From Bodo saltans (taxonomy: Eukaryota > Euglenozoa > Kinetoplastea > Eubodonida > Bodonidae), in assembly GCA_001460835.1 (NCBI GenBank), contig CYKH01000397.1:44659-108658 (forward strand): DNA of 64,000 bases, read 5' to 3'. Positions 11,475 to 54,679 of the stretch are shown in pieces. The position numbers were made by a program, and so were the translations under genes. Positions within the stretch are counted from its first letter, which is position 1. Each line of letters begins with the position of its first letter. The notes beneath the pieces are model-generated. The model saw only the letters and a list, made by a program, of their open reading frames with translations, searched no databases and had not been told where the DNA came from.

Positions 11475-14400
11475 ATGAACTTTGATGAAGATAGCTCATC
11501 AAGCAGCAGTGGCGACGAACTGCCGATGTTCGATACTGTGCAAGGACGTAAGAACAACCGCCATTCATCGCCACCGGCAGCAGCTGTTCGCCATGCAGAC
11601 CCGTCTGTGGAACGCAGCGACGATGATGCGGATGGTGTTGATGAAGACAGCAGTGGTATCAATGCCGATATTCCTGAGTGGGCACAGAATTTACAACGGC
11701 CTGGAACTTCGTCACTCGTCGGAAAATACTCCGATCGCCAAGATGAATTTACTCGTCACTTAAACTTCACCGATGACCCAGACGTTGAAGTCAGCCCTCA
11801 ACGTGAACGTTCTTCTCAACCTCGAAGCCACCGCGGTGGTGTTCAATCGTTTGACGAGGAAGGAGAAAACTCAACGCATTTCTCTGAGCACATGGAAAAC
11901 AGTGTTGGGCGAAACCGGAGTACAACATCAAACCCTCGACGTGGTGGTTCTGGTCAAGACGATGTTGGGAGTCCGAACCTCATCGAAGACGGTGACGATG
12001 GCGTCGATGACATTGAACGCCGCGATGGCGGAGGCAACGGTGATGACAGCGAAGAAGCGTTCCCCATCACAGAGGCTGCCCAATGGGACTCGTATCTTCA
12101 GAGTGGTGTGTTGGTGGATGAAACACCCTTCACTCAATTATACTCGATGGAAGAGGAGGTCGCTCAAGAAGAAGAGGGGGAAGAGAGCGGCGACGATGAT
12201 GATGACGATAGCGATGAGGAGGTTCGCCCCAAAAAGAAGGCAGGAGTTAAGACTGTTTCTCAAATCTTCAAGGTGTTTTGTCCTCCTCTGCCTGATGATG
12301 CCATCGCAACGGATTTTGATCGGGTTCGTCGCTTGACAGAGCGACTGTGCCGCTCGATGCTGAGCAGCGCCGAAACCATCGCCAACAACGATACCCTAAG
12401 AGATCGTGTCATTTGCAATATCGAAGAGGTTCACTGCGACAGCCAGACTCGTATCGTTGTTCAAGTCGCCTCGCATCACCCTTGTGTGACCCTGGGCGAC
12501 ATTGCTGCGTTCGTTTTTTTTTTTGTCCTCCTCTGCCTGATGATGCCATCGCAACGGATTTTGATCGATGCTGAGCAGCGCCGAAACCATCGCCAACAAC
12601 GATACCCTAAGAGATCGTGTCATTTGCAATATCGAAGAGGTTCACTGCGACAGCCAGACTCGTATCGTTGTTCAAGTCGCCTCGCATCACCCTTGTGTGA
12701 CCCTGGGCGACATTGCTGCGTTCGCAACGGTGACGTCCGAGCACATTCGTATCATCGCCACTACGGTGGTGCGCAACCTCGTGCGATTGCACGAGGATGG
12801 CCTTGTGCACGGCTCGCTCCATGGTGGCAATGCTCTGATTCACCTCACCAGCGGTTCGCTGAAGTTCACTGATGGTACCGGACTGCTGTCGTGCCCAGTG
12901 CTTGCACCTGATTTCAGTTTCATGTCGACACACCTTGCCTCTCACATCAAAGACCTCCTGCCCACGGAGCTCGACCCTAACGCTGAGCCGAACAGTTTCT
13001 TGAACGAGATGTGGGCTGCATTTTACGAAGACCCCTATCAAGAGGCCTTCCGTGACGATGCCGTCGCAGTCGCTCATCTGATTGCAATGCTAGTGAACGG
13101 CTTCCCATCAAGGTTTGGAATGAGTCTCACCGAAGTTGTGGACGACGTTGACAGCCATCCCTCTCCTGTGCTGCTGACCCTCGCCACCGGAGGAGACTAC
13201 TTTGCCCAGCGCGCAGCGGCTGCAGGCTTCACCGAGGAGTTCCTACACTCTGCGCAAAGTCTCATTGATGTTCTGGTAGGGACAGAATCTCTCGCTCAAG
13301 ACGACGTGCTTGAGCATTCCTTCTTGATATCCTCAAAGCAAATCGACGCCGATGCAACTGGTGAACTTGAACAGCAATTCGCCGAATTTCTCCTGCAAAT
13401 TGCACAAGAAGCGAGTCGAACGATTGAGTTCTCCTTTTTTTTTTTACACTCTGCGCAAAGTCTCATTGATGTTCTGGTAGGGACGGAATCTCTCTCTCAG
13501 GACGACGTGCTTGAGCATTCCTTCTTGATATCCTCCAAGCAAATCGACGCCGATGCAACTGGTGAGCTTGAACAGCAATTTGCCGAATTTCTCCTCCAAA
13601 TCGCACAAGAAGCGAGTCGAGCGATTGAGTTCTCTAAGATCACTGCTGGTAGCTCCCCAATGAATCTGCGACTCTTCCGCAATGCCATCTTCTCGTCTAA
13701 TATTCAAAGTAGTGGCACTGGTCGTCGCACTAACAGCGAGGTCGCTCACATTCTCCCTGAAGGGGTTTCATTTGTTGGCACCGACACTGTGGCAGCCAGT
13801 TGCAGATCTCGCTGTTGAATCCCCTACCCGCTGCTCGTATCATTCTTATCATTCGTAAAGTGGAAGACGCGTCGATTGTCATTCTCTCCAAGTTTCATCA
13901 CGTTGTTCTCCATGACGTTTCCAACTCCACCATCGCGCTGGGCCCATGCCGCGTCTGCTTGTTAGAGGACCTTGCACGGTGCCCACGCGTTGCAGTTGCT
14001 GCAGTACAAGCGATACTTTCACGCGTTGCCGATGTCGAGCTTTCGCTGCACAGTGCCGATGTTCCTATGTGCCCTGATCCCTCTACCATCTCAAACGTTA
14101 CGATTGTACCGTACAGCGTCTCGTACCCTGGCCTCTCCAGAGACTTCGAGGAGATTGGGCTGCCGCAAGAGTCTCAAGCAAGCCTGCTGTCCTACCAAGT
14201 GCCAGATGCAGTGGAACGGCGAGCGCCACAAGAACTGTTCGCGAATATCCGTACTGGTCATGATTATCCCTACCTTCGTGNNNNNNNNNNNNNNNNNNNN
14301 NNNNNNNNNNNNNNNNNNNNNNNNNNNNNNNNNNNNNNNNNNNNNNNNNNNNNNNNNNNNNNNNNNNNNNNNNNNNNNNNNNNNNNNNNNNNNNNNNNNN

Positions 14401-16982
14401 NNNNNNNNNNNNNNNNNNNNNNNNNNNNNNNNNNNNNNNNNNNNNNNNNNNNNNNNNNNNNNNNNNNNNNNNNNNNNNNNNNNNNNNNNNNNNNNNNNNN
14501 NNNNNNNNNNNNNNNNNNNNNNNNNNNNNNNNNNNNNNNNNNNNNNNNNNNNNNNNNNNNNNNNNNNNNNNNNNNNNNNNCACTGAGTGGGTCTGGGTCC
14601 CATATGCTGCTGGCACCAAACTCCCCGTCACGCAACACACGTCACGTCTTTCCTGTGATTATGATTGTTGACTCGGTTGAAGATGTGTACATCTCGGACT
14701 GCGAAAACGTCACGATTGTAGTGATTGGCGCAAAGGGGGCAATTAATGTCAGCAATGTGCGCCATGCAAAGCTGTTCTTGGCAGGTGCGTACGTGATGCT
14801 TTCTGATTGCAGTCATTGTGAAGTGCATGCGTTTGCGTTGAAGGGCGCAATGATCGAAGGATGTGAGCGTATTATCGTATTTCCCATGTTCGCTAGCTTC
14901 CCAGGCATTGACGGTGTCATCCAGCAAATGGCAGAGGCCAACGGGGTCGAAGGAGAAGTATCGGGTGCAGACAATTTGTTCCTGACGCCTCGTGTGCAAG
15001 TGCAGAACAACAACGGAGTCGATGTTCATCAACACCCGCAGCTTCTCGTATCCCTTGATGCACCTGAGCTCGGTGAGTGCCCCTCTGCACTTTTCTCTCA
15101 ACAAACAGCCCCAGCAGGAGCCAAATTGATCCCTGTCAATTTCTCATCGTCTCTCTTCGAAGGCCACCACTTGGCACTGGAAAGTGGATCGGTATTAGAG
15201 CGTTCCTCTGACGTCGTCGTGCAGATCTCTTACATGATCGACGCGAGCATCCTTCGCACTGCAGGTATGCTGTGTCCAGGACGCAAGCCTGCGCTGCCCA
15301 CCGACCCCTCTACAAATCTCATCATCTCACATGTCCACACTGGTGTCATCCATGTTGCGGACGCGGTGGCCCATCTCACGATTGTTGGCTGCACCGGTCC
15401 ACTCGATATTGTCGTCGCTGCAGCACAGCAAGTCACAGTGTCAGATTGCACTGGCATCACGGTGCAAGTCGCATGCTTTGGATTTACCGCCGCCCATTGT
15501 CAAAACTGTCATTTTGCGCTCCATGTCAATACGGAGCCTAAGATAGAGCAACGATGCGAAAACGTTCTGTTCTCTGCACTCAACATCACCTGTCTCGGGT
15601 ATGAGGATGTTCTGGATCGCGCATCGGTTCAACAACACTTGAACTTGTACGATCACCCGGTTGACGCTGACACGGCCGCGATCGGACCTTCTATCGCGAC
15701 GTCTACTGGCATCAGTGTAGAATCGTTGGGGGCCACGCTGCGAGTTTCTGACGCCGCCTCCGCGAGGAAACTTCTCGATCGCAGGTGCTTCATTGCTCCA
15801 CCTCTTCCAGCTACTTGTGTAGGAACTGCAGAGGCGCCATTCCTAGGTGCCCTTGAAGACCGCGTCGAGAAGGACCAAAGTCGGCCCAATGTTTACTTGA
15901 CCTTGTTCGAAGCGTTGTCAACTGTCGCCTCGTCTCGACTGGATGAAATCACCGACGAATCTTTACTCGTTGGTGACCGGCGGCATTCGATCAGCCATTC
16001 CGACGAAGGCCGTGAAGACGACGATCGCCCCCAGCGTTCCTCAGCGCGACTTGGGCAACGCAGTCGGAAACATGATCACTACGATTCATCCTCAGATGAT
16101 GAAGAAGACAACGACGAAGAGGTGAACGAAAGTGGACACTCCAGCAATACCACATCCCCGCGTAAGGTTGCCTCCCAGGCACAACAATCTCCGGCGCAGT
16201 CGGACTCTGACAGCTCACCCGTAAAGGGTGCTGCTAAGTCTGTTGTTCCTCCGCAGCACAAAGCTCCAGCGCAACCTGCATTCGTAGGATCGATGTCGGC
16301 AGCCAATCGTGATGACTCCTCCTCCTCCTCGTCCAGCGATGCCGACGACGATAGTGAAAAGCACCAAAGCCCAAATCGTTATAAAAAAAAAATCGGACTC
16401 TGACAGCTCACCCGTAAAGGGTGCTGCTAAGTCTGTTGTTCCTCCGCAGCACAAAGCTCCAGCGCAACCTGCATTCGTAGGATCGATGTCGGCAGCCAAT
16501 CATGATGACTCGTCCTCCTCCTCGTCCAGCGATGCCGACGACGACGATAGTGAAAAGCACCAAAGCCCAAATCGTTATGAAAACACATTCGATAACGACA
16601 GCGAAGATGATGAAGAGTACTCGCATCGAGGCGGTGGCAACGCCATGTCCCCAATGCGCCATGAGCATGTCACCGACGCTGCTCGATTCGATGGGGTTAT
16701 TTCCTCTGCAGAGCGCAGCGTTAAGCCTGCAGCTCTTCCGAGGAGCGACTCGCCATCAAATATCGCCATCAGTGAAGAGGAACCAGTTATTCCTACCCGC
16801 CGTGGCGTGGGATCCCCAGACCATAAACAAACCAACCCACTTCGTCAAGATGTGGCTGATTTCAAAGCATTCCTCGCTTCTGGCGGTGGCGCAGACAACA
16901 CTCCCTCACCAAAGAGAAGCAGCTCACGCTACGAAGCATCCGACGGAGAAGAGAGCGACGGGGGGATTGAGCTGGCTGTCGG

Positions 16983-17020
<38 letters not shown>

Positions 17021-18726: not shown

Positions 18727-18895
18727 GTGGAGGGCCAATAGTTTGCTTGCCCAATCTGTCGAGTTTCTGAGATTTCTGGCTGATCTCTTTAAATAGAACA
18801 ACTACACAAATGACTCTAGAATTACAGAACAAACGCAACATTAACTCATTTCGCCGTCTTTTTTCACCGTTTGGAAACTAGTAACTTGTACGCCA

Positions 18896-21001: not shown

Positions 21002-21499
21002 GCGCGCGTCAGAATACAGTACAAGTACATTACGTAGAAAAAAAATGTTTTGCGTTCTTTTTTCACAAAATTCTTGCATTCTTCATCCCGCATCCCGGTA
21101 AGCATGTGTACTCCTTCATCTTTCTTTGTTGTGCAACAGGAGGGAAGTCAACGCTTCGCGATAGTGTTGGCAGTCCATTCAAAGGGTTAAACAAAGAAAT
21201 CGCAAATTGGTCACACAACTTTCTAAAGAAGGGCTGCTGTTGAACATTCACTGCAGCAACGTGTGAGCACAAACGAAGGAGAAATACTTGGAGCTACGAG
21301 CAGTTATCTATTGTTTAGTTTAGTAAACTCAAAAACGAGTGAGCGTGAATTTGTTGGGCGGTCAAAACATCGCCATTTCCCAACACTTACAGCGAGGAGT
21401 GGCATTTTTTTCGAATTTCTCTCTCGCACATCAACCGATACGTCTTAGCACACAATCAATACGCATTCCCATCGACCTAAGCGCCACATCAAAAAGCAT
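21002..21499. other. Intergenic spacer with splice and polyadenylation signals
   Basis: No supported gene. The spacer holds several T-rich and pyrimidine tracts (around 21047-21063 and 21405-21425) followed by AGs, as expected for coupled polyadenylation and trans-splicing. The ORFs here use non-ATG starts and show no domain. Confidence 0.5.
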
Positions 21500-24721: not shown

Positions 24722-25078
24722 CGGTGCCCTCGCGTGGATGATAGGAGATTTTTCTACTTTTTTCGCACACCTGATGCCTTAGCAAATGCCCACACTCAGA
24801 TGATTCAACTCTGCTTACGTTTTCCTTTTTTTTGATTCCCTACCTGCTTTAAGGAGCTTCAAGTTGATACGCATCAGTGGCCTCAACTAACGAAGCACAG
24901 TGTCCTTTTTGTTCACGTGTGTGCTGCTTTCCCGCTTGATCGATCTTAAACGACACAGCTCAATCTATTTGCATTGTTGTTTTTTCCCCTAGCGATTACG
25001 ATTGATCTTCAACTCCTTGGCTTTATGTTTGTTGTGTTTTTTTTTTTTTAAAAGCAGAAACGCACTCAACAGTGGCTG
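24722..25078. other. Intergenic spacer, pyrimidine-rich
   Basis: No gene seen. Long T runs (for example 25037-25049) precede AGs at 25053-25057, the likely acceptor for the RPC11 gene. Confidence 0.5.
25027..25057 (+). promoter_or_regulatory. Candidate trans-splice acceptor for RPC11
   Basis: A near-pure T tract is followed by AGs at 25053-25054 and 25056-25057, about 22 bases before the ATG at 25079. Confidence 0.45.
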
Positions 25079-25432: not shown

Positions 25433-25619
25433 CCTCTCAGAAGGAGTGTCCTCATTGTTGTTGTTTTTTCTTTTTTTTTCACGTATGGCACACGCAATTC
25501 ACTTTCTTTTTGCGTACGATTTCAGAGGTGCTTGTTGGCTGATTTCATTTATTTTTTTCACCTTTCTTGTGTTCAAACGAATTACCGCAGCTTCAAAACA
25601 TTAAACAAAACGCACAGTC

Positions 25620-28744: not shown

Positions 28745-30045
28745 CACTTTCTAGGTGAAATCCACGCTCTCTCCCCAGAAACTTTTTGAGAACGTCAAGT
28801 AAGGACAACGATGAGAGTGTTGAGTGGAACCGATTCCTTCGTTTCGACTCCTCTGTGATTTATTAGTGTGATTCTTCAGGTGGACTTCATCGCGCTTTCA
28901 GTCGCACAGAAAAAGAAACACTTGCGTACCTTTCTGTTTTCTCGTTGACAAGACAACCGACTTGATCTGTTGCGTCCCTTCCACATCCTCCCTCAATTTG
29001 TTTACGTCATTTTGGCGCGTGTTGATTTCTACTTTGGCGTTTTCCGTTTTTTGTTTTCCTTTCGAACCCTCTCAACTTTGCTTTTGGCGTATTCAAAAAA
29101 AAAAATCAAACTTTTCAATGTGCGAGAAAGGGAACATGAATATTGCCGAGAAGTCACTCTTGCGACTGCGGTTTAACCCTCTCCTTGAACATAGAAGAAC
29201 AAACAATCAGAAGTCCAGCGTGCATTCGATGGACCCCAAATTCTTTTTATTGCGAGTGTTGGAGTCGGGTCAACTCCCAAAAAAAATTGCTGTTCGTTGC
29301 GTTCTCAATATCCACCCCGTTGGTGGGTGTGTATGGCGACGACTATCATTTGATATTGTGCTTTCTTGTTTTTCGACCTGCTACTGCGTGCAATGACTTG
29401 GCTGATTGGGTATGATGAACTGCATGTGTGTGGTGAGGTGTGATTGCGCCGAAGGCAACCACATTCCCCAAAAAAAAAAACTCTACCAACGAAACCAAAG
29501 AAAAAAAGTTGCCAATGACACCGACGTCAAGACATAACCTGCAAGAAGAAAAAAAAGAGGGAGTTTGTGTTTTCCCCTCCTTCACTGCGCCGTGTTGTTT
29601 TATCTTACTTTCTTTAGTTTCGCACGACCTGCTACTGCGTGCAATGACTTGGCTGATTGGGTATGATGAACTGCATGTGTGTGGTGAGGTGTGATTGCGC
29701 CGAAGGCAACCACATTCCCCAAAAAAAAAAACTCTACCAACGAAACCAAAGAAAAAAAGTTGCCAATGACACCGACGTCAAGACATAACCTGCAAGAAGA
29801 AAAAAAAGAGGGAGTTTGTGTTTTCCCCTCCTTCACTGCGCCGTGTTGTTTTATCTTACTTTCTTTAGTTTCGCAATTTTATCGCAGCAACCAAGCGACA
29901 CCACTTCTTCGATAGTTTCGTGCTCCTCACGGTGCCCTTTTCCTCATTTCTTTTTCTTTGCTCAATATTCTACTTCCATCTAAAGGCACAAGCCCCAAAA
30001 CGCGCAAATACACACACACACACATCAAAACACGATTTTCTCACA
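28745..30045. other. Long intergenic spacer containing a 251-bp tandem duplication
   Basis: About 1.3 kb without a convincing gene. T- and A-rich tracts are frequent. Small ORFs on both strands lie mostly in the duplicated segment and show no protein signature. Confidence 0.5.
29374..29875 (+). repeat. Perfect 251-bp tandem direct duplication
   Basis: Copies at 29374-29624 and 29625-29875 abut directly and appear identical base for base, including internal A runs. It lies wholly in the intergenic spacer. Confidence 0.92.
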
Positions 30046-34223: not shown

Positions 34224-35661
34224 ATGCAAGTTGAGGTCAAGGCGCTTATTGGCTCCCAAGAGACGTACAACACAACCCTCTCGCTGCTTCAAGGGCAGTT
34301 TATCCGTCAAGATTTGCAAGAAAACCACTTCCTTGACACAGCCGGGCGAGAGTTCTTTGCGCAAGGAACGATTCTACGGATCCGACTGATTGCAGTGCCT
34401 CAATCACCCACCAACAGCAGCCAACAGGAAGCAATTGGTCATGGCAGCCTCCTGCAGTACTCAAGTGCCAAGCTGATGATGAAGGCACACACTCATGTGG
34501 AAGACGGCTCGCAGATATCATGGACGGCTGAGGAGGCCATTCCGGTGGACACTGCGCGTGCCATCTTGACGACTCCTCGCCAGCTCTACGCACTCCTTCA
34601 GGCGGCCAATATTGTCAGTGAAACCATTTTACCGCGACTGGAACGGGAAGTGCCCAGGGAGCACCTTGACGCCTTGGAATACGTTGGCTCGTTCTCTACT
34701 CTCCGAACGGTGTGCCACTTTAAGTCCGAAGCACAGCCAGGTCTCGTGATGCACATTGATAAGACGACTTATCCGTTCGGGGAGCGATTTGAGGTGGAGG
34801 TCCCCAATATCACTGTGCCTGTGCATGACGTTGCCGAGGAGGTAGCTGCGTTTCTTACCGCCAATGGAATTCCGTTCGAGTTTGCAGAAGAGAGTAAGTT
34901 TCAGCGGTTTGTTCATGGCGTTCAAGCCACCAAATCTAGCAGTCATATGGTACAGGATGTGAAGGTTGTGTTAGACAGCGTGGAGGGTGTTCAGCGTGTG
35001 TCTGCCAACCTGGAATCGTTTCTCTTGTCGGAGAAGCAGCAAGACAACACATTTTATGACGGTTTTGATGATGAGTTGGCTGCACGTGGCGCATTCTTCC
35101 GCCTCCGTCACGAAGTCCATGGGAACCGCTTTGCCGCCGTGCTGAAAGAGCATCAAGATGTGGACTCAGGCTCTCAGGTCAACTGGACACAAGAGCTCGA
35201 ACTATCACCAGACGTGGCGCACGCGATTCTGCACGACCCAACTGGATTTCTTGCACAGGCAGGCTCCAATGCATTAGCTCAATCCCTTAAGGAAAAGTTT
35301 GGGGTCACGAGGCTTCGCAGCATTGGAAGTTTTTCTACGGTACGACGCGTATACGCGTGGGAGAACGCAACCAGCCAGCCAAGTGGTGGTCTGCAACTTC
35401 GCGTGGACACAACAACATTTCCGTTCGGTGAGCATTATGAAGTTGAGGTGACAGCCAAGTGGTGGTCTGCAACTTCGCGTGGACACAACAACATTTCCGT
35501 TCGGTGAGCATTACGAAGTTGAGGTGACAAACATCTCTGTGCCGGTGAGCGACGTACTTGCAGAACTTGAAAGCGTCCTGCGGTCGTTGGGTGTGGCATT
35601 CCGCGTGGCAACCGAAAGCAAACTTGACTGTTTCTTGCGCGGATGCAGCCGTCGTCATTGA
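34224..35661 (+). CDS. Tandem CYTH-domain protein (triphosphate tunnel metalloenzyme family), frame broken near 3' end
   Basis: Two CYTH-like repeats are visible. Repeat one begins MQVEVKALIG, carries GTILRIRL and KLMMKAH, and ends GERFEVEVPNITVP. Repeat two has VKVVLDSVEG, AFFRLRHEV, AAVLKEHQD and GEHYEVEVTNISVP. CYTH enzymes bind triphosphates with metal ions inside a beta tunnel (thiamine triphosphatase, adenylyl cyclase IV). The second repeat has VKVVL rather than the E-x-E-x-K start, so it may be inactive. The frame breaks at a 76-bp duplication (35377-35528) and otherwise stops at 35507. Removing one copy gives a continuous gene ending at 35661 with a matching C-terminal helix. Confidence 0.75.
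35377..35528 (+). repeat. 76-bp tandem direct duplication, frame-shifting
   Basis: Copies at 35377-35452 and 35453-35528 abut without linker and differ at one base (TAT/TAC). An offset of 76 (1 mod 3) breaks the CYTH gene. Confidence 0.92.
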
Positions 35662-35968: not shown

Positions 35969-36268
35969 NNNNNNNNNNNNNNNNNNNNNNNNNNNNNNNN
36001 NNNNNNNNNNNNNNNNNNNNNNNNNNNNNNNNNNNNNNNNNNNNNNNNNNNNNNNNNNNNNNNNNNNNNNNNNNNNNNNNNNNNNNNNNNNNNNNNNNNN
36101 NNNNNNNNNNNNNNNNNNNNNNNNNNNNNNNNNNNNNNNNNNNNNNNNNNNNNNNNNNNNNNNNNNNNNNNNNNNNNNNNNNNNNNNNNNNNNNNNNNNN
36201 NNNNNNNNNNNNNNNNNNNNNNNNNNNNNNNNNNNNNNNNNNNNNNNNNNNNNNNNNNNNNNNNNNNN
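35969..36268. other. Assembly gap (300 N), probably hiding a second histone H3 copy
   Basis: Exactly 300 N. The sequence resumes inside a histone H3 coding end, so the gap should contain the rest of that gene. A 144-codon H3 needs about 430 bp, so the real gap is longer than 300. Confidence 0.95.
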
Positions 36269-36310
36269 GACTTGCACCTCGCACTCAAGCTGCGTGGGGA
36301 GCGTCGTTGA
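36269..36310 (+). CDS. 3' fragment of a second histone H3 gene
   Basis: The first 40 bases after the gap match the end of the complete H3 gene at 37091-37130 exactly and encode the same last 13 residues ([13 protein letters not shown]), but the stop is TGA rather than TAA and the 3' flank differs. This is therefore a distinct H3 copy, not a misplaced read of the same gene. The rest lies in the gap. Confidence 0.85.
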   Translation, partial: DLHLALKLRGERR

Positions 36311-36697: not shown

Positions 36698-37132
36698 ATG
36701 GCTGCGAAGAGCACTGTGAAAAGCGAGAAGGCTAAGGCCGTCGTTAGCAAGCCCCGTAAGAACCTGGGCTCGCGCAAGACGTACACGCAAGGTCAGGTGT
36801 CTGCGAAGCAGGCAGTTGGCTCTGCGCCGAAGAAGTCTCACCGCTGGCGCCCGGGCACCGTCGCGCTTCGCGAGATCCGCAAGTACCAGGCCACGACTGG
36901 CACCCTCATTCCCAAGGCTCCCTTCCGCCGCTTGGTGCGTGAGATCTCGTCCTCAGTGAAGGAGACCATCCGCATGCGCGCGACCGCCATCGAGGCGCTG
37001 CAAGAAGCCGCTGAATCCTACGTGATCAGCGTTGTCGGTGACGCGAACCTGTGCGCCATCCACGCCAAGCGTGTGACGCTGTTCCCTCGTGACTTGCACC
37101 TCGCACTCAAGCTGCGTGGGGAGCGTCGTTAA
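36698..37132 (+). CDS. H3: Histone H3
   Basis: Core nucleosome histone, 144 residues. The fold is clear from [53 protein letters not shown] and the final LRGERR. The N-terminal tail ([16 protein letters not shown]) is divergent from animal H3, as in trypanosomatids. It lacks the ARTKQTARKS start, so most canonical tail-mark positions cannot be assigned by position. The ATG lies four bases after AG 36692-36693. The gene is followed by a 250-bp spacer. A second copy sits just upstream. Confidence 0.97.
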
Positions 37133-37363: not shown

Positions 37364-37385
37364 CCCCTTACGTGTTACCACATTT

Positions 37386-40300
37386 ATGGCGTCCACTTCC
37401 ACCAACGAGACTGCGAAGCCAGCTAGTGGAGGGAATGAACAGCCACCCCAAGCACAGCAACCTGCAGCGGAGGTCAACAACAACAACAACAGCTCCTTGT
37501 ACATGGATGTAGAGGAGACGGAGCTGCTTCACCGCTTCAGCACTGACAATCCCAACATGGTCACCTTCAAAGATACAGATGATCGAGTTCGTACTCTAGA
37601 AGAGCGTTTTCCTGAGAGTGAGCTCGAGAAGTTGCTCATCAAAGCGAATCGTACTCTAGAAGAGCGTTTTCCTGAGAGTGAGCTCGAGAAGTTGCTCATC
37701 AAAGCGAATCAGTTGCTGTCCAAGCGCAAGGAAGCCATGGCCACGGATGACAGGGTGCAGACGCTACCGCTCCATCCCACGATTCCTACGGTACTGGAAC
37801 TGCGTGAACTTCGCAACGCCATTATCGATACGGTGGCACTATCAGAAGAGTCAAGGGCGAGCTTGCCGTATGCTCTTGCCTTACTAAAAACGTTTTTTGA
37901 AGGGGAAACGGAACGGCTGCCACGCAAGTTGTTGAAGTACCTTCAGCGGTATGAGCAGCTCTCATCCAAAGACACTGAGTGCGCCATTGCCCTTCGCAGC
38001 CCGGTCCAGCAGCGGCTCTCAAAGGTGCAAGAACAAATTCAATTCGCCAAGCACGCCCTTCAGACGATTACTACGTACTCAGATTTGTACTCAGCTCAAT
38101 CGCGCATCGGCACCAACTCTCGCAGCTACGCACCAGACAACACCGACGACGCCAAATTCTCTGCTCAGTCGGTGAATGCGCGCATGGCAGAAGCGTTGCA
38201 CCCTCTCTTCTTCCGCTACTTCATTGCAGATCAATCCGTTGAGTATCGATGCTCTCGCCGGTTTGAGCGCTTCCTCAGTCGCGCCCAGCTCATCCCCTTC
38301 ACGAAGAGGTATGACTTGTACGCCGAGGTGACGCAACACTTGGTGGGAGGCCACCCTGCCATTGGTGCGGACCAGTCACATGCCGTGCCGCTGTTGGGAA
38401 AGGTGGAGTCTTCCTTCGCAGACCAGCTGGACCATCTGTGCTCGTGCTTTCGTATTCCCCATAATGATTCCAACGCTGATTTGCAGCAGTTCGCGTATCT
38501 CGTGAACCGCAAGTATCAACTTGTGTTCGCCGCACAGAACGAGGAATGGATGTTTGTGCAAGACACACACCAGCCCCACTCGCAAAACGCCGATGGGAGG
38601 AGCACCGCCAACAGCGCTGCACTCAAGTCGACTTCCTCATCGAAAACATCAGCCGGCGGTGCTCGCACGCCCACACCAACCCCGGGCACTGCTGCAGGTG
38701 GGAAGAGTGCAGGGAGTGCAGGGGACGCGTCTGTCGTCAAGGTCGTGTTGCGGAAGTCGTTATGGGCAAATCACGCCCTTCGTATTGACCCTGGTGCTCC
38801 TGCGTGGCAAGTGCAGCAAGAGCTGCGCCTGTCAACAGTTGCTCTTACAGGGGAAGGAGGGCGTCAAATTGTTTCTGAAATCGAATACTTGAAAGAAAGC
38901 AACGTCCAGCAGTCCGGTGATCGTTGGAAGCAGCGCGCAGAAGCACTCCATCGACGCCTGCAGCATCGCAAAGGATTCGGGATCGTCACCAGCGGTGTTC
39001 TTGCCGCAGACGCAGCGACGGAAGATGCGCCGTCGATCGATATGGCCGCCATCAACCGCCTCGTTGCGGGAAGCCCACTGCTTCAAAAGTACCATGCTGC
39101 CCAGCAGCTTCGCTTCATCCGAACTCGTGAATTCCGACGAAAGATTCTTGACTTTCTCAACTGTTTTGCGTCAATTCTCAGGACGGTGGCCCAAGACACA
39201 TCGATGACCAAGTCGGTATCCCACAGCTCCACCGGTGTCGCTGCCATAAGCATTCCGCCAATCCCAGCGGACGCAGAGTTTGAGCACCGCCGCAAAGTTC
39301 TAGACGCCGCGTTGACCGTTGATGATCCTCTTCGGTTTGTCGAGTGTGAATCCTTCGCATCGCAAATGATGAGCTTGCACTTCGATGGCGTTGCCGGAGA
39401 CGCTGATGTAGATTCCACGGATCTGAAAACAACGCAAGATGTTTCAGGTGGTCGCAAGAAGTCCGCGTCTCACTTCGGCAAAGATGCCGCTGCTGCCTTT
39501 GAGGAGGCAAAACCATCCTCCAGCCCCTCTGCAATCTCCACCGCCCACATCGATAGTGTTGAGGTGGTGGATGGAAAGTACTCCGTCAAGCGTGGTCACG
39601 ATGGTGTGCCTGTGATGGACTCATGGGCTATCGAAGAACTTGCACGTGTGGAACACTGGCTGGCAAGGGTCGCCACGTGGTTTGTAGAGCAGTACAACAA
39701 CGGCACGTACCCAGACCCCTTTGATGCCAATCACAACAACAACCCACGAGGTTCGCCTACCTCACCAGACTCGCCAAATCAGGACGGTAGCTCCGGTGTG
39801 ATCGACTACGCCACAGTTGTGGAGGACTTACTGGAAGCGGAATGTTGGTTTATGGAAGGCAAGTTCAAGGTGGTGAATGATTATCGTGAGGCGTACGAGC
39901 AAACAACGGATGGAAAGAAGCAACATGAACTTGCATCGGCGATGATTGGCCTCATTCGCCGTCGCCCACGCATTGACTTTTCCGACGCCTACTTCACTGG
40001 ATCATTCACTCGCGAAGTTGTCAACTTTGAACTCCACCATGCACTGCTGCGTGAAATTATTCAAGCACAGATTGTGGAAGAGCGGCGAATTATTGCAAGC
40101 GCTGCGCCACGAGACTCCAAGCCTGATGCTGCCGCCACTGGTGGTGCTGGGTCAACGCAGGATAAGGACCGTGCTCCACCGTCCCGTGCTAACAGCATCT
40201 ACTCTGCGGGGTCTGTGAAAGGCGGTGGTCAAGGCGCCAACAATCCGCAGTCCAATGCTCCGTCCATGAGTGGTGCTCGTGTCAAAGCTGCCGACACCAA

Positions 40301-45122: not shown

Positions 45123-45326
45123 CAATTGTGGATCAAAAAAATCCCCCCTCCCTCTCACAGTGCTGTGTCACCGCAACGAATGTACACCTTAGACTTTTTT
45201 CAAGTTCACTCTCCATGATGATTCTGACAACTGTGCTAAAGGGAGCCATTAATTCGAGTCAACCTTTTTTTATTATTTGTTTTGATCATAAAAAGCGAAT
45301 TAGATCGCTAAATAGCCTGCAATTCG

Positions 45327-48300
45327 ATGTGGAGAAAACATCAAATTGCCTTTGTTGCGGTGCTCGTTGCTGTGCTCGTCGGCTTTTCGGCAGCTCAAAC
45401 CAGCCCAACCACAAATTCGTCTGCACCATCGTCCACCGTACTTTCAACCGACACTAGCTCAACGACAGCACCACCCCCAACGACAACCTCCACTGTTGCG
45501 CTTACCACCACGACGACCACCGTGACACCCACCACCACCACCACCGTGGCACCCACCACCACCGTGGCACCCACCACCACCACCACCACCGTGGCACCCA
45601 CTACAACTACCGTTGCTCCCACCACGACCACTGTGGCCCCAACCACAACCATCGCACCACTGCAGGCAGGTTCTCTCCGCTCCTATGTCTTCCTTGACAG
45701 CACTGCAACGTCCACCAACTTGACCGTTATCAACAATGCGATGCAGACGTTGATCTCTCAGCTCACTTCAGATTCCAAGGCACTTTTCGCGACACCCCCG
45801 CAGTTCATTGACACGAAAGGCGACGTGTTGACCGCATTGGGCCAGCTGCAACAGTTGGTTGCGTCCAACACCACCTTCCCCGATTTAATCTTTATTGGCA
45901 CCAAAACGGACGTGTCCCTTGCTTGCGTTGAGTGATGTGCTCAAGCAGAGCACCATCACGACCAACATTCCAGTGATTTCCATTCATGACTCCAATGCAC
46001 GCATGTGCGACTATGCCACGAGCCCCGAGACGGTGTGCATTGTCCCGCGCGACTACTTCAACGTACGCGCCGCTCTGCAGATCACGTCGTTGAAGTTGGG
46101 CTGGGCGTCTGCTGCTGTTGTGCTCAGCAACAATGATTACGGAACTGGTGTCGCCACTGGTCTCGCTAGCGAGATTCTGTCCGCCACAAGCGGGCCAACG
46201 ATCGTCACGCAGGCTATTATTCCCCGCCTGAAGACCAGCAACGCCACCGACGATGCGTTCGTCAAGGCTCTCTTGAAGTACAACCCTGTCGGTATCTTGG
46301 CGTGGGTGAGCGATGCTGAGCTGACACGTCTCCGCCAAGCCGCCGTGCGTGTCGGCCTGACAACTTCCCAAATCTTCTTCATCGGCAGCCGCGAAGCACT
46401 CAACATCGTTTCCACGATGACTGGAGCCAAGCTCGCCCAGACGACGACACCTCTCTGGGGTGCCCTCATCACACCGGAATTCACGCCGATGGAAACTTGG
46501 GTGACCAGCGGCCTTGTCCCTGCCAACACGATGGATCAGATGGGCGCCTTCATCCTCAGCTACCTGATGGATGCGATGCAGTTGGTCATGAACGCACGAT
46601 CCAGCAACATCACCCGCATCCGCTACGCCACGGTTGTTGGCGGCTACACGGGTACCGTGTCACTTGACGCTGTGTCGTTCCAGCGTGCCTCGGTGATCTT
46701 CCGTCTCATCTCGGCCTCCTACGATATCACCCGCGCCCTCGTTACGTGGTCCGTCACGTCCCTTGGCGCCACGCCCGTGATTGATATCTCCACGACGAGC
46801 ATCTCCTCGATCATCCAGCCCTCACCGCTGTTGGCTGTGACAGTGTGCATGACAGCGCCCTCTACGTGCGTGGATGTCGCAAACGTGAATGCCCTTCTCT
46901 TTTACTTTGAGAATCTCAACAATAACCGTGCGTCCAACACAAGCGTCAGCTACATTCCACTGCCTGTCTACACTGGCTCCTCTGGTGTGGAGGGATTGTC
47001 CAACCTTATCCCAGTCGCACGCTCTTGCACCTTCCTCACCGGCCCAGGCCGCAGCACCGTCGCCTCTGCCCTTACACCCGTCATCAACGAGTTCTCCATC
47101 CCCCAGCTCGATTACAGCACTGCTAGCGGTGTTTTCTCTAACCTGTTGATGTACCCGTACTTCTCTCGCACTCTGCCCCTGGAAACCTTCCTGTACGGCG
47201 CCCTGTTTTTTTTTTACGAGTTCTCCATCCCCCAGCTCGATTACAGCACTGCTAGTGGAGTTTTCTCGAACCTGTTGATGTACCCGTACTTCTCTCGCAC
47301 CCTGCCCCTGGAAACCTTCCTGTATGGCGCCCTCGGCGAGGCGGCCAGCTACTTCGGCTGGGAGCGTGTTATTCTGATCTCCACCGATGACGCCTACGGT
47401 GTCGAGTCCACTACTGCTGCCCAATCTGCCTGCGATGACAAGACCATTCTCGTCGAGGCGTCCTACGCCGTCTCCGACACCACCAATGCCACCCTTGCTG
47501 GCGTCTTCCAAGACATTCTCAATGTTGCCATCTCCCGTGTGATCATCTTCTTGATCCCCCTGCAGGGAACCGACGCAGCAAATTTCTTCACCTTGGTGAA
47601 CCTCATGGGCATGAACAACCCAAGCACCCAATACCTCTTCTTCCTGAGCAATGATCTGTGCCAGTACGCGCTCTCCTACCCCGCTGCACGCCAAAATATC
47701 ACCAACTCCATCTGCATGACCCCGTGGGTCAACCCCACTACGTACAACGTCACCCAATCTGCGTACTTGACCTCTGGGATGCAGTCGACGCTCTCGTCGA
47801 CCCTCTACAGCGGCGGCTTCACTACCGTGGGCAGCTGTGATTTGTCGCAAATTTCGACCTATAGCGCATTTGCCTTGGACACCGGCGCAGTGATTACAGA
47901 CGTCATCACACGTGCCCAGAAGGCAAAGATCCTCTTGACCAACACCGCAGCACTCCTCCCCCTGGTGCGCACCACCTCCATCACCACCGCCTCCGGGTCG
48001 TTCTCCATCAACGCCAATGGCGACCGCGACTATGCTGCGTACAACATGAACATCCAAACTGCGTCTGGCCTCGTGGTCTTCGCCAAGTGGGACACCAAGA
48101 CGTACCCCAACTTCGTCTACAACACCTCAGCCAGCATCGTATGGTACGATAACACGACGGACATCCCCTCCTCCACATACCGCTCTATTTCCTTCATCAC
48201 CAAGTCCACCATCTCCACCAACCCGGGTACCATTGTGCTGTCTGTGTTGGGATTCGTTGGCACTATCGCAGTGTTCTTCTTCTGCTACCGCCACTACAAG

Positions 48301-48381
48301 ATGCAGCGCCTCATCGAGCTGTCCTTGGAGACAGGCGAGATGACACCGACGACGAAGAATTATCGTGAGTCTGCATATTAG
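45327..48381 (+). CDS. Type I surface protein with Thr-rich stalk and receptor-type ligand-binding modules (frame broken by 4-bp duplication)
   Basis: An N-terminal signal peptide (MWRKHQIAFVAVLVAVLVG) is followed by a Thr/Pro/Val mucin-like stalk (residues ~35-110) and two periplasmic-binding-fold modules. Module one includes DYFNVRAAL, LGWASAAVVLSNNDYG. Module two includes YPYFSRTLPLETF, FGWERVILISTDDAYG, the pattern of ANF-receptor and receptor adenylate cyclase ectodomains. A transmembrane helix (IVLSVLGFVGTIAVFFF) and a short basic/acidic tail end the protein; there is no cyclase domain. The frame breaks at 45918-45925, where CTTG occurs twice. One copy would give a continuous SLALSDVLK. 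A second duplication (47087-47333) adds about 43 residues in frame. Many N-glycosylation sequons fit surface location. Ligand unknown. Confidence 0.8.
45477..45655 (+). repeat. Thr-rich low-complexity repeat (TTTTVAPTTT)
   Basis: Degenerate ACC/ACG/ACA-rich repeats encode tandem APTTT-type units, an expected O-glycosylated stalk. Confidence 0.9.
47087..47333 (+). repeat. Direct duplication (~118 bp) with poly-T linker, in frame
   Basis: Copies at 47087-47204 and 47216-47333 are joined by T residues. The offset is 129 bp. The five differences I count are all synonymous. The linker reads as Phe (GALFFFYEF). Confidence 0.92.
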
Positions 48382-49238
48382 GTTGGTGACGAAGAAGACA
48401 TGGAAATACGATTAAGAAAAGAATGGGAGACCTGTACGCTGCCCTTTTTTTATCGTGTGTCAAATTGCTGAACCAAACAAACAAAATTACACAAAAAAAG
48501 AAAACAATACTACAAACTACAAAACTCAAAAAAAAAACTCAAAAAAAAATCCCCACTCCACACACACTTCTCTGTCTGAGCGTTGCTCGACATGGCATTC
48601 AAGCTTTGCGAAGTATCGATGATTGTTGTCGCACTTCCTGTGATTGTTTTTTGCCACTTCTGCTGAGACCGCGCCGCTCATTACATATTAAGTGGGCAGA
48701 ATGCGAAAATCTGAAAAGAACGTGGCTAAACTTTCACACTAATGTTGCTCCAATTTTCGCTGATATTTACGTAACAAATCAACCCAAACCATTGGAAGAA
48801 AACCCCCTGCCAGAATGAAAATAAAGAAAACACTGAAACACACAAAAAAAAAACTAGCACCAAAAATCAGCCGACAGTATCATCACCAGCGAGTGAGATT
48901 GCGGTGTGTGTGTGTTGCAATGAATCCACTGCAGAGGTGGAGTGTGTACTCCAACATATGTGTTCGTCTCCCCCAATTAGACACTCTTACGTGCACAACT
49001 TGAAGGCGCGACAGAAAGCAACGTTCACAAAAGCACAACAGAGAACAAAAAAATAGGCGAACAATATGGAGTACTTGTTGACAGAAATCCAATGGATTGG
49101 GTTTACGTTTTAGGATGCGGCACAATAAAAAAAAAACGCAAAGATTTTTTTTGGGATGTGACGATCATTGGCACGCACCTGCCTCTCTTCGAATGACTTG
49201 TCTCTTCCACAAAAAAAATAATAATAATAAGGTATCGT
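48382..49238. other. Intergenic spacer (857 bp), A-rich
   Basis: No supported gene. The plus strand has many A runs (48490-48550, 48842, 49125, 49210) instead of the usual T-rich tracts, and an AAT-type repeat (49218-49230) just before the next start. Confidence 0.5.
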
Positions 49239-52200
49239 ATGAACACAGAAGCTGCCCTTGGGTTCTATGGGAGCACACCCTCAACATTGGCGAGTGCGCC
49301 TAACGAAGGCACTTACAATGCCTCAAAATGGTTTGCTGCTCAGCACCAAGCAAAGTTGCCAAGTGCAGGTTGCAAGCTGAGTACAGTTGTCACTGACAGC
49401 GACGTCTCGCGCTGGGAGGCATCGTTGGATACCGAGGCAGCAAATCTGCTTGCTCACAATGAGGATGTTGCTGCACACGTCATTCCTGATCTTGCCAACG
49501 CCGTTGTAAGCCAAGAAACAGCTGCCGATGTCAGTCGGTTGTGCATCATTCCTCCGTTCGTTCCTTCTTCCGTCGCTGCCCGTAGCAACGCAAAGCAGCT
49601 TGCGCACCGCTCCAAGTGGCTTCCCTACCGCCAAAAGGTTCCAGTGTACCAGCAGCGCAGCGCTATCGTCGCGTCTGTGCGTGATGCCCGCGTTGTGACG
49701 GTGGTTGGCGGACCCCATAGCGGCAAGTCCACACAAGTTCCGCAACTTCTTGCCGAGACCGACATGTTCAAGAGAAAGCGTATCGTGGTTGCAACCGCCA
49801 CACCAATGTCGGCAGTACTTCTCGCGAAGCGCTTGCGCGAAGAGAAGGGTGACTCTGCCCCGTCCATTGCCCACTGCGTCGCATTGTCCACGTCGGATTG
49901 CACCCAAGCGTCGCTTATTGTTGTCTGCACGTATGACGTGCTGTTCCGCTCACTCCTTGCCGATGCACGCATGCAGGACGTGGGATGCATTGTGCTCGAT
50001 GACCTCCACGTGCACCACACCCTTTACATGGACTTGTGCCTGACTGCGCTGCGCGACCTTCTTTCACATGCAACCGCCAACAAGGACATTCGACTGGTGA
50101 TCAACTGCCGTGACGACGTTGTGGAGTCCTCGTTACTGCAATTCTTGCAACCCCTCGTCTCTGCTGGCCAGAAGTTTGATAGGCACGTCGTCCCAGACTC
50201 GATGACAAATTCCTCTGCGGTGATGTATTTAGACGACGCAGCTCAGTGGTTGCAGAAGTCTGACGCCGCGAAGGGCAACGCCTCCCTTGTACGTGATCCA
50301 GCGGCAGAGCTCGGTGACGTTGCCAACAACGTTCAGGTGCTCGCCCGTGTGCTCGACAGTGACACCGCTGGTGACATCATCAAGACCAACGTCAAAGGCC
50401 TTGAGAACTACTGGTTACCACTCTTGCGTGAGATTGCCTTCACATATGACGTTGCGGAGAGCAAAAATAATGCGGAGGCAACTACAAAGGCCAAGAACGC
50501 CGTCAAAAAAAAAAATGCTGGTGACATCATCAAGACCAACGCCAAAGGCCTTGAGAACTACTGGTTACCACTGTTGCGTGAAATCGCCTTCACATATGAC
50601 GTTGCGGAGAGCAAGAATAATGCGGAGGCAACTACAAAGGCCAAGAACGCCGTCATGATCGTGCTCCCCTCCAGCGAAATGTGCAGTGTGGTGGAAGAAG
50701 ACCTCCGCAAGCATCACAATACTACTGTCGAGAGCTCACCACCGTTTCACGTCGTGACGTTTGTCACGCAGCTCACTCCAGCTGCGATGGAGGCTGCTGC
50801 CTCACAAGTTAGTGCGGCCCTTTTGAACTCCTCTCAACGTGTCGTATTGTTGACGACGCCGCAAGAAATAGTGAACACGACGCTCATCCCTTTTAAGAAC
50901 ATCGGTTGCCTTATCGACACGTGCCGACAAGATCGCATCGCCTACGACAGCAGTGTAGAGGCGGACCGCTGGACCATCGGGGAAACGATCAGCAAAGCGG
51001 CCCTCCGCGATCACCGCCTGCTCTTGCACAGCAATCCCACCCACACGATGTCCATCCAGCTTCTGTCTCGCCAAGCGCTTCACAGTCAGCGCACAAAGCA
51101 GACCAATCCGCACCCATTGGCAACTGCGACGCTTGATGCACTCCTTGCAGCCATTACGTTTGTGTACCTCCGCACAAAGCATCAGCAGCAGAGTGGAAGC
51201 GGTTTGGGGCCTCGTCTCGTCAAGCACTTTCTGTCGACTTGCTGGGATGCGAATCCCAATCAACTCCGAGGAGATGCGTGGCAGAAGAACACCCAGCAAG
51301 CAGAGTCATGGCTTCAACATCTTGGCGCACTCGACGCAAAGTTTGCCCTCACTGGGCTTGGAGTAGGATCGCTTGTGATTGGTCTGCCATGGCAGGTGAG
51401 CCGATTGTTGCTGTTTGGCAGCCTCTTCGCCCCCACAGCAGTGATCCACATTGCTCTCCTTGGCGCAACGTGGCTTGCTGGTGACATCTTTGACAGCAAA
51501 GACGAAAGTAGTGCACAAGATGCCAAGAAGTTTTTCCTCAGCAGCAACAGCGGAGAATCAATTGGCGTGCCCATCAATGCCTTCTCCATGTGGCGAACGG
51601 TAGTCAAAACGCCAGCCGAAGAAGATGAATTTCTTGCGACTGCGCACCTCAGTAAGAGCCGGTTGTTGGAAGTGCAGGCGTTGCATTTGGAGCTTCTGAA
51701 TCGTCTTCGTCAGTCAGGATTGTCGACTATGGATGCCCCAACAATCGAAATGGTGGACAAAGTCTTGACGCTTCAAAGTGACTCTGCTGCTGCACCTCAC
51801 GACGCAGCGCTTCGGTTCTGTGCGACTGGTGCGGTGCATCCGAATGTTGCGTTCCACAGCAAGTCGGGAGCGCTTGGCGTAGCTCGGCTGATGGACACTG
51901 CAGTGCCCTCCCTCCTGCCTACTGTCGTAGTGCCCCCTCGTAGTGGTCTCGTCACAGCGGCCCCCGTTCAAATTGCAGTGACTAAGATTGTTGCCCCAAC
52001 AGGATCGCACATGGAGCTCACAACCTGCGGGTCCATGTCGCTGCCCGCTGCTGTTGTGTGCTGTGGAGTTGGAGTTCGTCAACCGTTGACGCCCCCAACC
52101 CGCACACGAGGGTGGATGTCGGCACTGACCAACACGTGGCGGCAGACCAACGCAGCTCGTCATCTCCCGCCACCTCCGCAAATTTCCGCTCGAACAGTGC

Positions 52201-54679
52201 CGTTGAAGTTTCACAATCCCACACGTGTTGCGCCTGTTGCTCTTGAGCTTGACGGTGCCATCAACGTTCTGACAAGTGCCACAACAGCGGCGTTGCTCTC
52301 AAAGATTCGTGATTTTTCGAAGCGAAAGTTGGCGACAATGATTTCACTGAAAGAATCGAAAGCTGTCGCTGAAGCAACAAGTTCTCGCAATACTCTTGAG
52401 GAAATTCTACAATGGCTCGACCAGCGCCAAGCGACGCAAGAAGACTTCCTACGTGACCGCCGAGAGCACATGGGCGTCGAACAGAACGCTGGAGACCTGC
52501 CGTTACCCTACCTCACATTCGCAGAGGCGTATGAGCGACCAGTCGCTATCCGAGTGGTAGCTGCTCAAGCCTTCACTGCTTCTTCTGCAGCGTCGACTGG
52601 AGCGGCGGGGCCTGCTGCGGTGACGGGAGAAGTTGCGGTCGCAACAGCGTTGACGTTCACTGGTGCTATCCCACCGGATCAGGCAACCCAAGCGCTCATC
52701 CGTCGAACAGCCGAAACGATCGGAAAGAATCCAAACCGCGATGGCGAGGCGAACTTCATGCAGCGTGACAATTTTGCGTTCCTGCGTCAAGATCACCAGT
52801 ACCACGAGTACTACCTTCACATCCTAAAGAAAGAAGCCCCCCACTTGGATTGGCTCGGTGATGATCTCGTGGAGTTGGAGAATTGGCTGCAAGACTTGGA
52901 GCGTCAGATTGAAAAGGACGCTGAGAGCACATGGGCGTCGAACAGAACGCTGGAGACCTGCCTTTGCCCTACCTCACATTCGCTGAGGCGTATGAGCGAC
53001 CAGTTGCTATCCGAGTGGTAGCTGCTCAAGCCTTCACTGCTTCTTCTGGAGCGTCGACTGGGGCGACGGGGCCTGCTGCGGTGACTGGAGAGGTTGCGGT
53101 CGCAACAGCGTTGACGTTTACAGGCGCTATCCCACCGGATCAGGCAACCCAAGCGCTCATCCGTCGCACAGCCGAAACGATCGGAAAGAATCCAAACCGC
53201 GACGGCGAGGCGAACTTCATGCAGCGTGACAATTTTGCGTTCCTGCGTCAAGATCACCAATACCACGAGTATTACCTTTACATCCTTAAGAAAGAAGCCC
53301 CCCACTTGGATTGGCTCGGCGATGACCTTGTGGAGTTGGAGAATTGGCTGCAAGACTTGGAGCGTCAGATTGAAAAGGACGCAGACGCATCGTTCCTGCA
53401 GAATGGTCAACAGCATCAGCAATATCAGCAGAATGGACAGCACGATCCCACTGGGTATGAAGAAGTCTCCGAAGAACAGTTCACTGCTGAGCTTCAACGC
53501 CAGCGCGAGGCTGAGGAGGCCCAGCAGAAAGCAGCGGAAGAGGAGCGTCGCAGGAAAGAGGCTGCCAATCCTCCACACTTACCGAAGCCTGGCTCGACCA
53601 CCCAATTCTTGTCGCCCGATGCAAGTGCACAGGGAGTTGGTTCGGGGATGCTACACGGAGGCAACACATTGCTCCAGCAACTTATGGCGATGGCAGGCCG
53701 CACCAACGCCGCGCCGCCACCAACCGCCGCCACCCTCAGCTCCGCACCACCAGCCCTACCTCCGTTGGATGGCCCAGCAGCAAGCAGTGCAGCCTCCATC
53801 TTTGGCAAAAAAAAAAATGCCGCGCCGCCACCAACCACCGCCACCCTCAACTCCGCACCACCCGCCCTACCCCCGTTAGATGGCCCAGCAGCAAGCAGTG
53901 CAGCCTCCATCTTTGGCAACATTCCCGGAGTCGCACCGCCGCCACCATCAGCCCCTCAAGAACAGCTTAGTGCTTCTGACCTCCTCGCCATCATTGGCGG
54001 TGGTGGAGGCAATGGTTCTATTTTTGGTGAAAGTCTACCGCTATTCAACGCGCCGCCAGCTCTGCGCGCCCACCCATTAACGATTCCTCCCCCGCCGCTT
54101 CCCAGCGAGGCCGTGCAGAATCGATCACCATCTGTGATCGTCGAGCCCCTCCCTAATGCACCCGGTATGAACCTACCTCTGGTGCTCGCAAAGGCGCTGG
54201 GAGAGACTCTCGACATGAAAGTTGGTCCAACGCTCATTATCGGTGATGTTGCTCGTATTGAAGTTCCAAGTATCAGCGTGGAGTCCCGAGCGATTGCATT
54301 GAAGCACTTCTACTGCCTTGGATCAAAGCTCACGATCATTAAGAACGATCGTATCATTGACAATCCCTCCCGAGTGAACAGCTCACGGATTATGGAGCTC
54401 AAAGAGCGCCTTCATGGCGGCCGCGGTGGACGTGGTGGATACGCACCCTCAGCGCCAATGGACTCATCGTTCCGCGGCCGCGGAGGCCGAAGTCGTGGTG
54501 GGCGCGGTGCACGCCCCAGCTTCGTTGAGGATGACACTCCGAAACAGGTGACTAGTTTTGTTCCTGCAACGATCGGTGCTGGCTACCTGCAACCCCCACC
54601 TCGTTTTGACCAGCAGGGCCAAGATGCAGACGCCGCCGGGCGTGCAGCTGGGTCCTTCACCGACAGCGACGAAGAGTAG
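49239..54679 (+). CDS. Degenerate DExH-box helicase-like protein with C-terminal RGG box (frame broken by a 461-bp duplication)
   Basis: The Walker A motif is intact (GPHSGKST, residues 158-165). Motif II is DDLH (254-257) instead of DExH, motif III reads VINCRDD, and the position of motif VI has ISKAALRDHRLL with no QRxGRxGR. The HA2 region is recognisable (LGALDAKFALTGLG, VIGLPWQVSRLLL), followed by an OB-like part. The C-terminus is Pro-rich, then an RGG/RG box (GGRGGRGG, FRGRGGRSRGGRG). This is the DHX9/DHX36-type layout, but ATP hydrolysis coupling is probably lost; it may act as an RNA-binding scaffold. Three duplications lie inside: 50.37-50.65 kb (in frame), 52.46-53.38 kb (frame-shifting) and 53.71-53.92 kb (in frame). 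Removing one copy of the middle one makes the gene continuous from 49239 to 54679. Confidence 0.8.
50367..50654 (+). repeat. Direct duplication (~138 bp) with poly-A linker, in frame
   Basis: Copies start at 50367 and 50517 with an A run between. The offset is 150 bp; the linker reads as Lys (NAVKKKNAG). I count five differences, four synonymous and one Val/Ala. Confidence 0.92.
52462..53383 (+). repeat. 461-bp direct duplication without linker, frame-shifting
   Basis: Copies at 52462-52922 and 52923-53383 abut. The offset of 461 (2 mod 3) ends the first helicase frame. More than a dozen base differences separate the copies, mostly synonymous. Confidence 0.93.
53708..53919 (+). repeat. Direct duplication (~101 bp) with poly-A linker, in frame
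   Basis: Copies start at 53708 and 53819 with an A run between; the offset is 111 bp. I count five differences, three synonymous (the others Ala/Thr and Ser/Asn). The linker reads FGKKKNAAP. Confidence 0.92.

What the first reader, a model, noticed from the sequence alone, without database searches (positions are those of the whole stretch)
12275..53919. Six direct duplications whose copies are joined by a short A or T homopolymer
At 12.5, 13.4, 16.4, 47.2, 50.5 and 53.8 kb a 100-240-bp segment is repeated and the copies are linked by about 9-12 A or T. The linker strand varies (T at three sites, A at three), and the duplicated sequences are unrelated. Such a uniform structure at six unlinked coding sites is unlikely to arise by ordinary slippage. 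The simplest reading is a shared assembly or gap-closing process that joined overlapping contig ends with a homopolymer. A biological alternative, insertion of a poly(A) tract with long target duplications, would be new.
Basis: partly seen in the sequence, partly recalled or inferred. Interest (0 to 1): 0.75.

Follow-up and report, generated by a model that had tools for sequence, protein, structure and literature searches.

The report
Padding left by genome assembly software
Six short duplications joined by runs of A or T in a Bodo saltans genome sequence are most likely overlapping fragment ends that assembly software placed side by side with a ten-letter filler, so they are an artefact and not a feature of the organism.

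Summary
The six copy-homopolymer-copy structures are real in the sequence. The window is from Bodo saltans (inferred from exact primer matches), whose published genome was assembled with Velvet 1.0.18 at k-mer 41 (PMC4728078, passages). Turned so that the linker reads A, all 9 sites found (6 here, 3 elsewhere in the assembly) have 10 A once one adjacent native A is allowed; in 7 of 9 the perfect match before the linker is exactly 40 bases, k-1 for k = 41. Differences between copies are mostly synonymous (19 of 24 codons, four sites), as between alleles. Homologues have a single copy at the three sites checked. In 253 kb, 8 of 40 A/T runs of length 10-11 lie between copies, against 1 of 289 other runs of 6 or more, and that one is an ordinary tandem repeat. 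That the filler was first N and was later read as A is inferred. No raw reads were available. Interest is low, but predicted proteins in the public set carry the error.

The parts
12280..12724 (.). Site 1: copy 1 (12280-12513), T11 linker (12514-12524), copy 2 (12525-12724). Copy 2 lacks 34 bases of copy 1; otherwise identical.
   Evidence: exact tract at the linker 43 (44 with one native T), not 40; four native T at the edge
13245..13634 (.). Site 2: copy 1 (13245-13433), T11 linker (13435-13445), copy 2 (13446-13634), 180 of 189 identical
   Evidence: linker 10 plus 1 native T; exact tract 40
16200..16578 (.). Site 3: copy 1 (16200-16382), A10 linker (16383-16392), copy 2 (16393-16578), 181 of 183 identical plus small indels
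   Evidence: linker 10; exact tract 40
47087..47333 (.). Site 4: copy 1 (47087-47204), T10 linker (47206-47215), copy 2 (47216-47333), 113 of 118 identical, in an ANF_receptor-like gene; adds 43 residues that the 7 aligned homologues lack
   Evidence: linker 10; exact tract 40
50367..50654 (.). Site 5: copy 1 (50367-50504), A11 linker (50505-50515), copy 2 (50517-50654), 133 of 138 identical; spacing of 50 codons; the 2 long homologues have one copy
   Evidence: linker 10 plus 1 native A; exact tract 40
53708..53917 (.). Site 6: copy 1 (53708-53806), A11 linker (53807-53817), copy 2 (53819-53917), 94 of 99 identical; spacing of 37 codons; the 2 long homologues have one copy
   Evidence: linker 10 plus 1 native A (two native A at the edge); exact tract 40
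52458..53382 (.). Duplication D2 without linker (spacing 461, 95% identical); one gene appears as two overlapping ORFs; near one edge an exact 40-base tract
36269..36308 (.). First 40 bases after the declared 300-N gap, repeated over exactly 40 bases at 37091-37130: a k-1 word at a contig end

Best explanation
Each site is an assembly join. At heterozygous places Velvet (k = 41) ended one contig on one allele and began the next on the other, so neighbouring contigs overlapped (57 to 200 aligned bases at the nine sites). Read pairs placed the contigs next to each other, the estimated gap was negative, and the software wrote a fixed 10-base pad instead of merging the overlap. The pad, first N, was later read as A by a two-bit base code, and appears as T where the scaffold was reverse-complemented. 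Shown here: fixed 10-base pad, k-1 = 40 tract, allele-like differences, single copy in homologues, agreement with the published program and k. Inferred: heterozygosity as the cause, that the pad was once N, and which program turned it into A.
For: Pad length: 10 in 9 of 9 sites after allowing one native base of the same kind at the edge. Exact-match tract before the pad: exactly 40 in 7 of 9; with 4.5% differences a tract of exactly 40 has a chance near 0.7% per site. The published assembly used Velvet 1.0.18 with kmer 41, then SSPACE, GapFiller and IMAGE (PMC4728078, passages). A 40-base word also occurs at a declared gap edge (36269-36308), near one edge of D2 and at both edges of a duplication with a one-base linker in L011. 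A and T sites are one structure in two orientations: with the run turned to A, the first base after it differs from the other copy in 7 of 9. Differences between copies: 19 synonymous and 5 non-synonymous codons; by codon position 3, 2, 19 (4 in-frame window sites). Homologues have one copy: 7 of 7 aligned (of 19 found) at site 4, 2 of 2 at sites 5 and 6. Whole assembly: exact runs of 8, 9, 10, 11, 12 number 3537, 2344, 1645, 868, 457, an excess at 10-11 over a geometric decline, and the reverse/forward bias of runs is 1.52, 1.53, 1.41, 1.24, 1.57 (10-11 against the rest p = 0.01).
Against: Two of nine sites lack a 40-base tract: site 1 (43, or 44 with one native T) and L050 (28). Sites 1 and 6 have more than one native base of the pad's kind at the edge (4 and 2), so their pad could be counted as less than 10. 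Five of nine copy spacings keep the frame (201, 129, 150, 111, 102; not 173, 68, nor sites 1 and 3), more than a third, though not significant (p = 0.14). Organism: two B. saltans primers (GAPDH F, Rab1 R) were not found in the held 29.3 Mb, and the PFR2 primer site lies at other contig coordinates than the paper gives for scaffold1667. The excess of runs gives about 365 pads in the assembly, with no excess of 11-base runs on one strand; the sampled rate outside the window (3 of 45) would give about 170. I found no printed statement of the 10-base minimum gap or of N being read as A; both are recalled.
Confidence: 0.97

Rival explanations
1. Insertion of a poly(A) tract by a retrotransposition-like or end-joining process, with long duplications of the target.
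For: Copy-A(n)-copy resembles a fully truncated retroelement with target duplications (recalled); 5 of 9 spacings keep the frame (p = 0.14).
Against: Linker fixed at 10 in 9 of 9 and exact tract of 40 in 7 of 9. Copies already differ by 4-5% at 4 of 6 window sites while the run is uninterrupted. Homologues have one copy and no run at the three sites checked.
Confidence: 0.01
2. Real local tandem duplications inside genes, with the homopolymer made by slippage or fill-in at the junction.
For: Real-looking tandem repeats exist in this assembly, e.g. L010 2389-2544, whose T8 belongs to the repeated unit.
Against: Slippage is not expected to give one fixed run length between unrelated copies, or a 40-base tract. 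At sites 1 and 3 the spacings are not multiples of 3 and the ORFs break there.
Confidence: 0.01
3. Same kind of artefact, but the pad was written by another step than the main Velvet run, e.g. Velvet inside IMAGE, GapFiller, or SSPACE. The confidence given is the share within the artefact reading, not added to it.
For: All three programs were used (PMC4728078), and IMAGE itself ran Velvet (PMC2884544, passages). L050 has a tract of 28, which a smaller k could explain. Joins with a single-base linker also occur (L011, L031).
Against: Seven of nine tracts equal k-1 of the main Velvet run.
Confidence: 0.3

Closest known systems
False duplications in genome assemblies (PMC9516828; title and start of abstract seen in the search listing; the rest recalled)
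   Same: A stretch present once in the organism appears twice in the assembly; overlap of haplotype contigs is a known cause (recalled)
   Different: Here the gap between the copies is not written as N but as 10 A or T, so it is not recognisable as a gap
Velvet scaffolding with a minimum gap of 10 N and two-bit storage of bases (recalled; not found in print)
   Same: Fixed 10-base pad; k-1 overlap words at contig ends; N can become A
   Different: The step at which N became A in this project is not given in the passages I read
Retrotransposon insertion with poly(A) tail and target site duplication (recalled)
   Same: Copy-A(n)-copy layout
   Different: Fixed run length, long copies that differ, no element body

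Membership tests
Assembly join of overlapping contig ends (Velvet, k = 41) | Linker of one fixed length whatever the flanks | tested here: met
   10 in 9 of 9 after allowing one native base; sites 1 and 6 less sharp because of further native bases
Assembly join of overlapping contig ends (Velvet, k = 41) | Exact overlap word of k-1 = 40 at the contig end | tested here: met
   7 of 9; misses are site 1 (43/44) and L050 (28)
Assembly join of overlapping contig ends (Velvet, k = 41) | Published assembly used this program and k | tested here: met
   PMC4728078 passage; organism inferred from primers (misses)
Assembly join of overlapping contig ends (Velvet, k = 41) | Copies differ as alleles do | tested here: met
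   19 synonymous, 5 non-synonymous codons at 4 window sites; sites 1 and 3 were not in this count
Assembly join of overlapping contig ends (Velvet, k = 41) | Raw reads lack the junction | not testable with these tools
   no reads held
Poly(A) insertion with target site duplication | Variable poly(A) length | tested here: not met
   all 9 runs are 10 or 11
Poly(A) insertion with target site duplication | Duplicated target identical, or as old as the run | tested here: not met
   4 of 6 window pairs differ by 4-5% although the run is intact

The most novel reading that the evidence does not exclude
A real process in Bodo saltans inserts short poly(A) into genes with long target duplications.
Probability: 0.01. 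Interest if true: 0.8.

Novelty: not a real feature. Interest (0 to 1): 0.1.

Why it matters
It matters for users of this genome only. Two predicted proteins in the searched public set that equal the window's own (P0001, P0021) carry extra residues. ORFs break at sites 1 and 3 (no homologue checked) and at D2, where two homologues run through. Rough extrapolations give about 170 to 365 such pads in the held 29.3 Mb. Because the pads contain no N, filters that look for N miss them; a scan for runs of 10-11 A/T between near-identical copies finds them.

Tried and rejected
Real structure under frame selection: 4 of 6 window spacings are multiples of 3 (p = 0.10), and 5 of 9 over all sites (p = 0.14); not significant, so not used for either side.

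A second copy of the locus elsewhere in the assembly (another haplotype contig): only the locus itself was found for 12100-13900; the other sites were not searched this way.

Other records: no match of 49239-53018 among phage records, as expected. The protein search with ORF 12568-13815 (site 2) gave no homologue; that used the last of three protein searches, so the ORFs of sites 1 and 3 have no homologue test.

Printed support for the 10-N minimum gap and for N read as A in Velvet: searches gave nothing usable in their listings (of the listed papers I opened one '10 Ns' passage, in PMC3610655; it is about another matter). A search for a long-read B. saltans genome (8 of 16 papers listed) showed none by title.

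L010 2470-2477 (T8 between copies) was set aside from the nine sites: the T8 is part of a repeated 78-base unit. It is kept in the 1 of 289.
Full report
Observation. The six copy-homopolymer-copy structures are present as described. The linkers are 10 or 11 bases of A (three sites) or T (three sites). The copies align over 99 to 200 bases at 95 to 100% identity. Around all A/T runs of 6 or more in 253,474 non-N bases (the window and 24 stretches of the same assembly; one of these is all N and one repeats 59 bases of the window), flanking duplicates were found at 3 of 25 runs of length 10, 5 of 15 runs of length 11, 1 of 53 runs of length 8, and 0 at lengths 6 (117), 7 (77), 9 (26), 12 (3), 13 (5) and 14 or more (8). 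The single length-8 case (L010) is an ordinary tandem repeat whose unit contains the T8. Of 20 further loci chosen only for holding a run of exactly 10, one (L050) has the structure; one of the 20 (L037) lies inside an earlier stretch. With L021 and L029 that makes nine sites: six in the window and three outside.

Organism and assembly. The receptor-like protein of site 4 has its named trypanosomatid homologues in Trypanosoma, Strigomonas, Angomonas and Leishmania at 37-40% identity, so the host is a kinetoplastid outside those genera. Primers published for the Bodo saltans PFR2 gene (PMC9544060, passages) match the same assembly exactly: PR3 at C348, and in the 3-kb locus around it 5 of 7 primer sequences tested, PR3 included, in consistent order; two of the five overlap each other. 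PR3 lies about 7 to 13 bases further into the gene than the paper states, depending on where the start codon is taken, and the contig coordinates differ from those the paper gives for scaffold1667. PF1, by the paper 1.2 kb upstream of the gene, would lie outside the piece held; the 3'UTR primer was not found in it either. The HSP70 R primer of PMC2621209 (passages) matches exactly once; the GAPDH F and Rab1 R primers do not match. I take the organism to be B. saltans. Its genome was assembled from Illumina reads corrected with SGA, by Velvet 1.0.18 with kmer 41, then joined with SSPACE and closed with GapFiller and IMAGE, the process being repeated three times, followed by ICORN and REAPR (PMC4728078, passages).

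Anatomy. I turned every site so that its run reads A. Four runs are 10 long, and in each of these the native base after copy 1 is not A. Five runs are 11 long, and in each of these it is A. The linker is therefore 10 plus a native base. In sites 1 and 6 there are further native bases of the same kind (4 and 2 in all), so the count there is less sharp. Counting one native base, the perfectly matching stretch that ends at the linker is exactly 40 bases in 7 of 9 sites; site 1 has 44 (43 without it) and L050 has 28. In a de Bruijn graph with k = 41 neighbouring nodes share words of k-1 = 40 (established knowledge), so the published k-mer can be read off the sequence. In 7 of 9 the first base after the linker differs from the other copy. 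These features sit on the same side of the run in A and T sites once oriented, so the two kinds are one structure on opposite strands.

Further marks of the same process. The first 40 bases after the declared gap at 35969-36268 recur, over exactly 40 bases, at 37091; the other three gap edges in the window show no repeated word of 15 or more. A duplication in L011 with a one-base linker has exact tracts of 40 at both edges, and D2 in the window has one of 40 after a 3-base match and a mismatch, and 53 at its other end. The internal gaps seen (two in the window, one in L011) are each exactly 300 N; stretches of N of other lengths at the start of sampled stretches are probably withheld sequence. 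Other duplications do not show 40: L031 and L021 4517 have edges of 49 to 60, and several are perfect or nearly perfect tandems in which no tract can be read.

What the copies are. At the four window sites where both copies stand in one frame, 24 codons differ: 19 synonymous and 5 not; by codon position the differences are 3, 2 and 19. This is the pattern of alleles, or of closely related strains, kept by selection. Homologues have one copy: 7 of 7 aligned, of 19 found, at site 4, and 2 of 2 at sites 5 and 6. Those two homologues (P0022, P0023; 1592 and 1600 residues) also run through both overlapping ORFs at D2, so one gene has been split there. Site 2's ORF had no homologue, and the ORFs of sites 1 and 3 were not searched.

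Whole assembly. Exact runs of 8 to 12 A or T number 3537, 2344, 1645, 868 and 457. Against a geometric decline from 9 to 12 there are about 286 too many at 10 and 79 at 11; at 11 the excess is on one strand only, which pads alone would not give. The strand bias of the runs dips at those two lengths (p = 0.01), as pads on either strand would cause. The sampled rate outside the window, 3 of 45 distinct runs, would give about 170. The number is uncertain by a factor of two or so, and the window (6 of 14 runs of 10-11) is unusually rich.

Mechanism. Best reading: contigs that ended at heterozygous branch points overlapped; the scaffolding step estimated a negative gap and wrote a fixed 10-base pad; N was then read as A by a two-bit code when the scaffold passed through a program again, and shows as T after reverse-complementing. 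The fixed pad, the k-1 word and the allele-like copies are shown. The 10-N origin and the N-to-A step rest on my recall of Velvet; three literature searches did not confirm them.

Verdict. It deserves a note for users of this genome, because the pads contain no N and two predicted proteins in the searched public set carry the extra residues (P0001 and P0021).

Noticed in passing
window 52458-53382: A 461-base duplication without linker (95%) splits one gene, with weak helicase-like matches, into ORFs 49239-53021 and 52931-54679; two homologues span both.
   Followed up: yes
window 54622-55292, 29374-29875, 37589-37710, 35376-35529: Further local duplications with no linker, spacings 335, 251, 60 (100% identical) and 76 (99%). 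They may be joins without a pad or real tandems; not decided.
   Followed up: partly
window 14281-14580, 35969-36268; L011 7063-7362: These three declared gaps are each exactly 300 N; I recall 300 as a setting used with IMAGE, not checked.
   Followed up: no
L011 5533-5839, L031 8551-8829: Duplications (96-97%) joined by a single T, the first with exact tracts of 40 at both edges: probably a second kind of join with a one-base pad.
   Followed up: partly
P0001, P0021 (window 45895-48381, 49239-53021): The protein set gives 128,366 bases as the longest contig for these two window proteins, whereas the held contig C197 has 108,658; unexplained.
   Followed up: no
P0002 (homologue of window 45895-48381): A transcriptome record under the taxid of the ciliate Platyophrya macrostoma holds a 63%-identical homologue of this kinetoplastid receptor: probably a bodonid in that culture.
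   Followed up: partly
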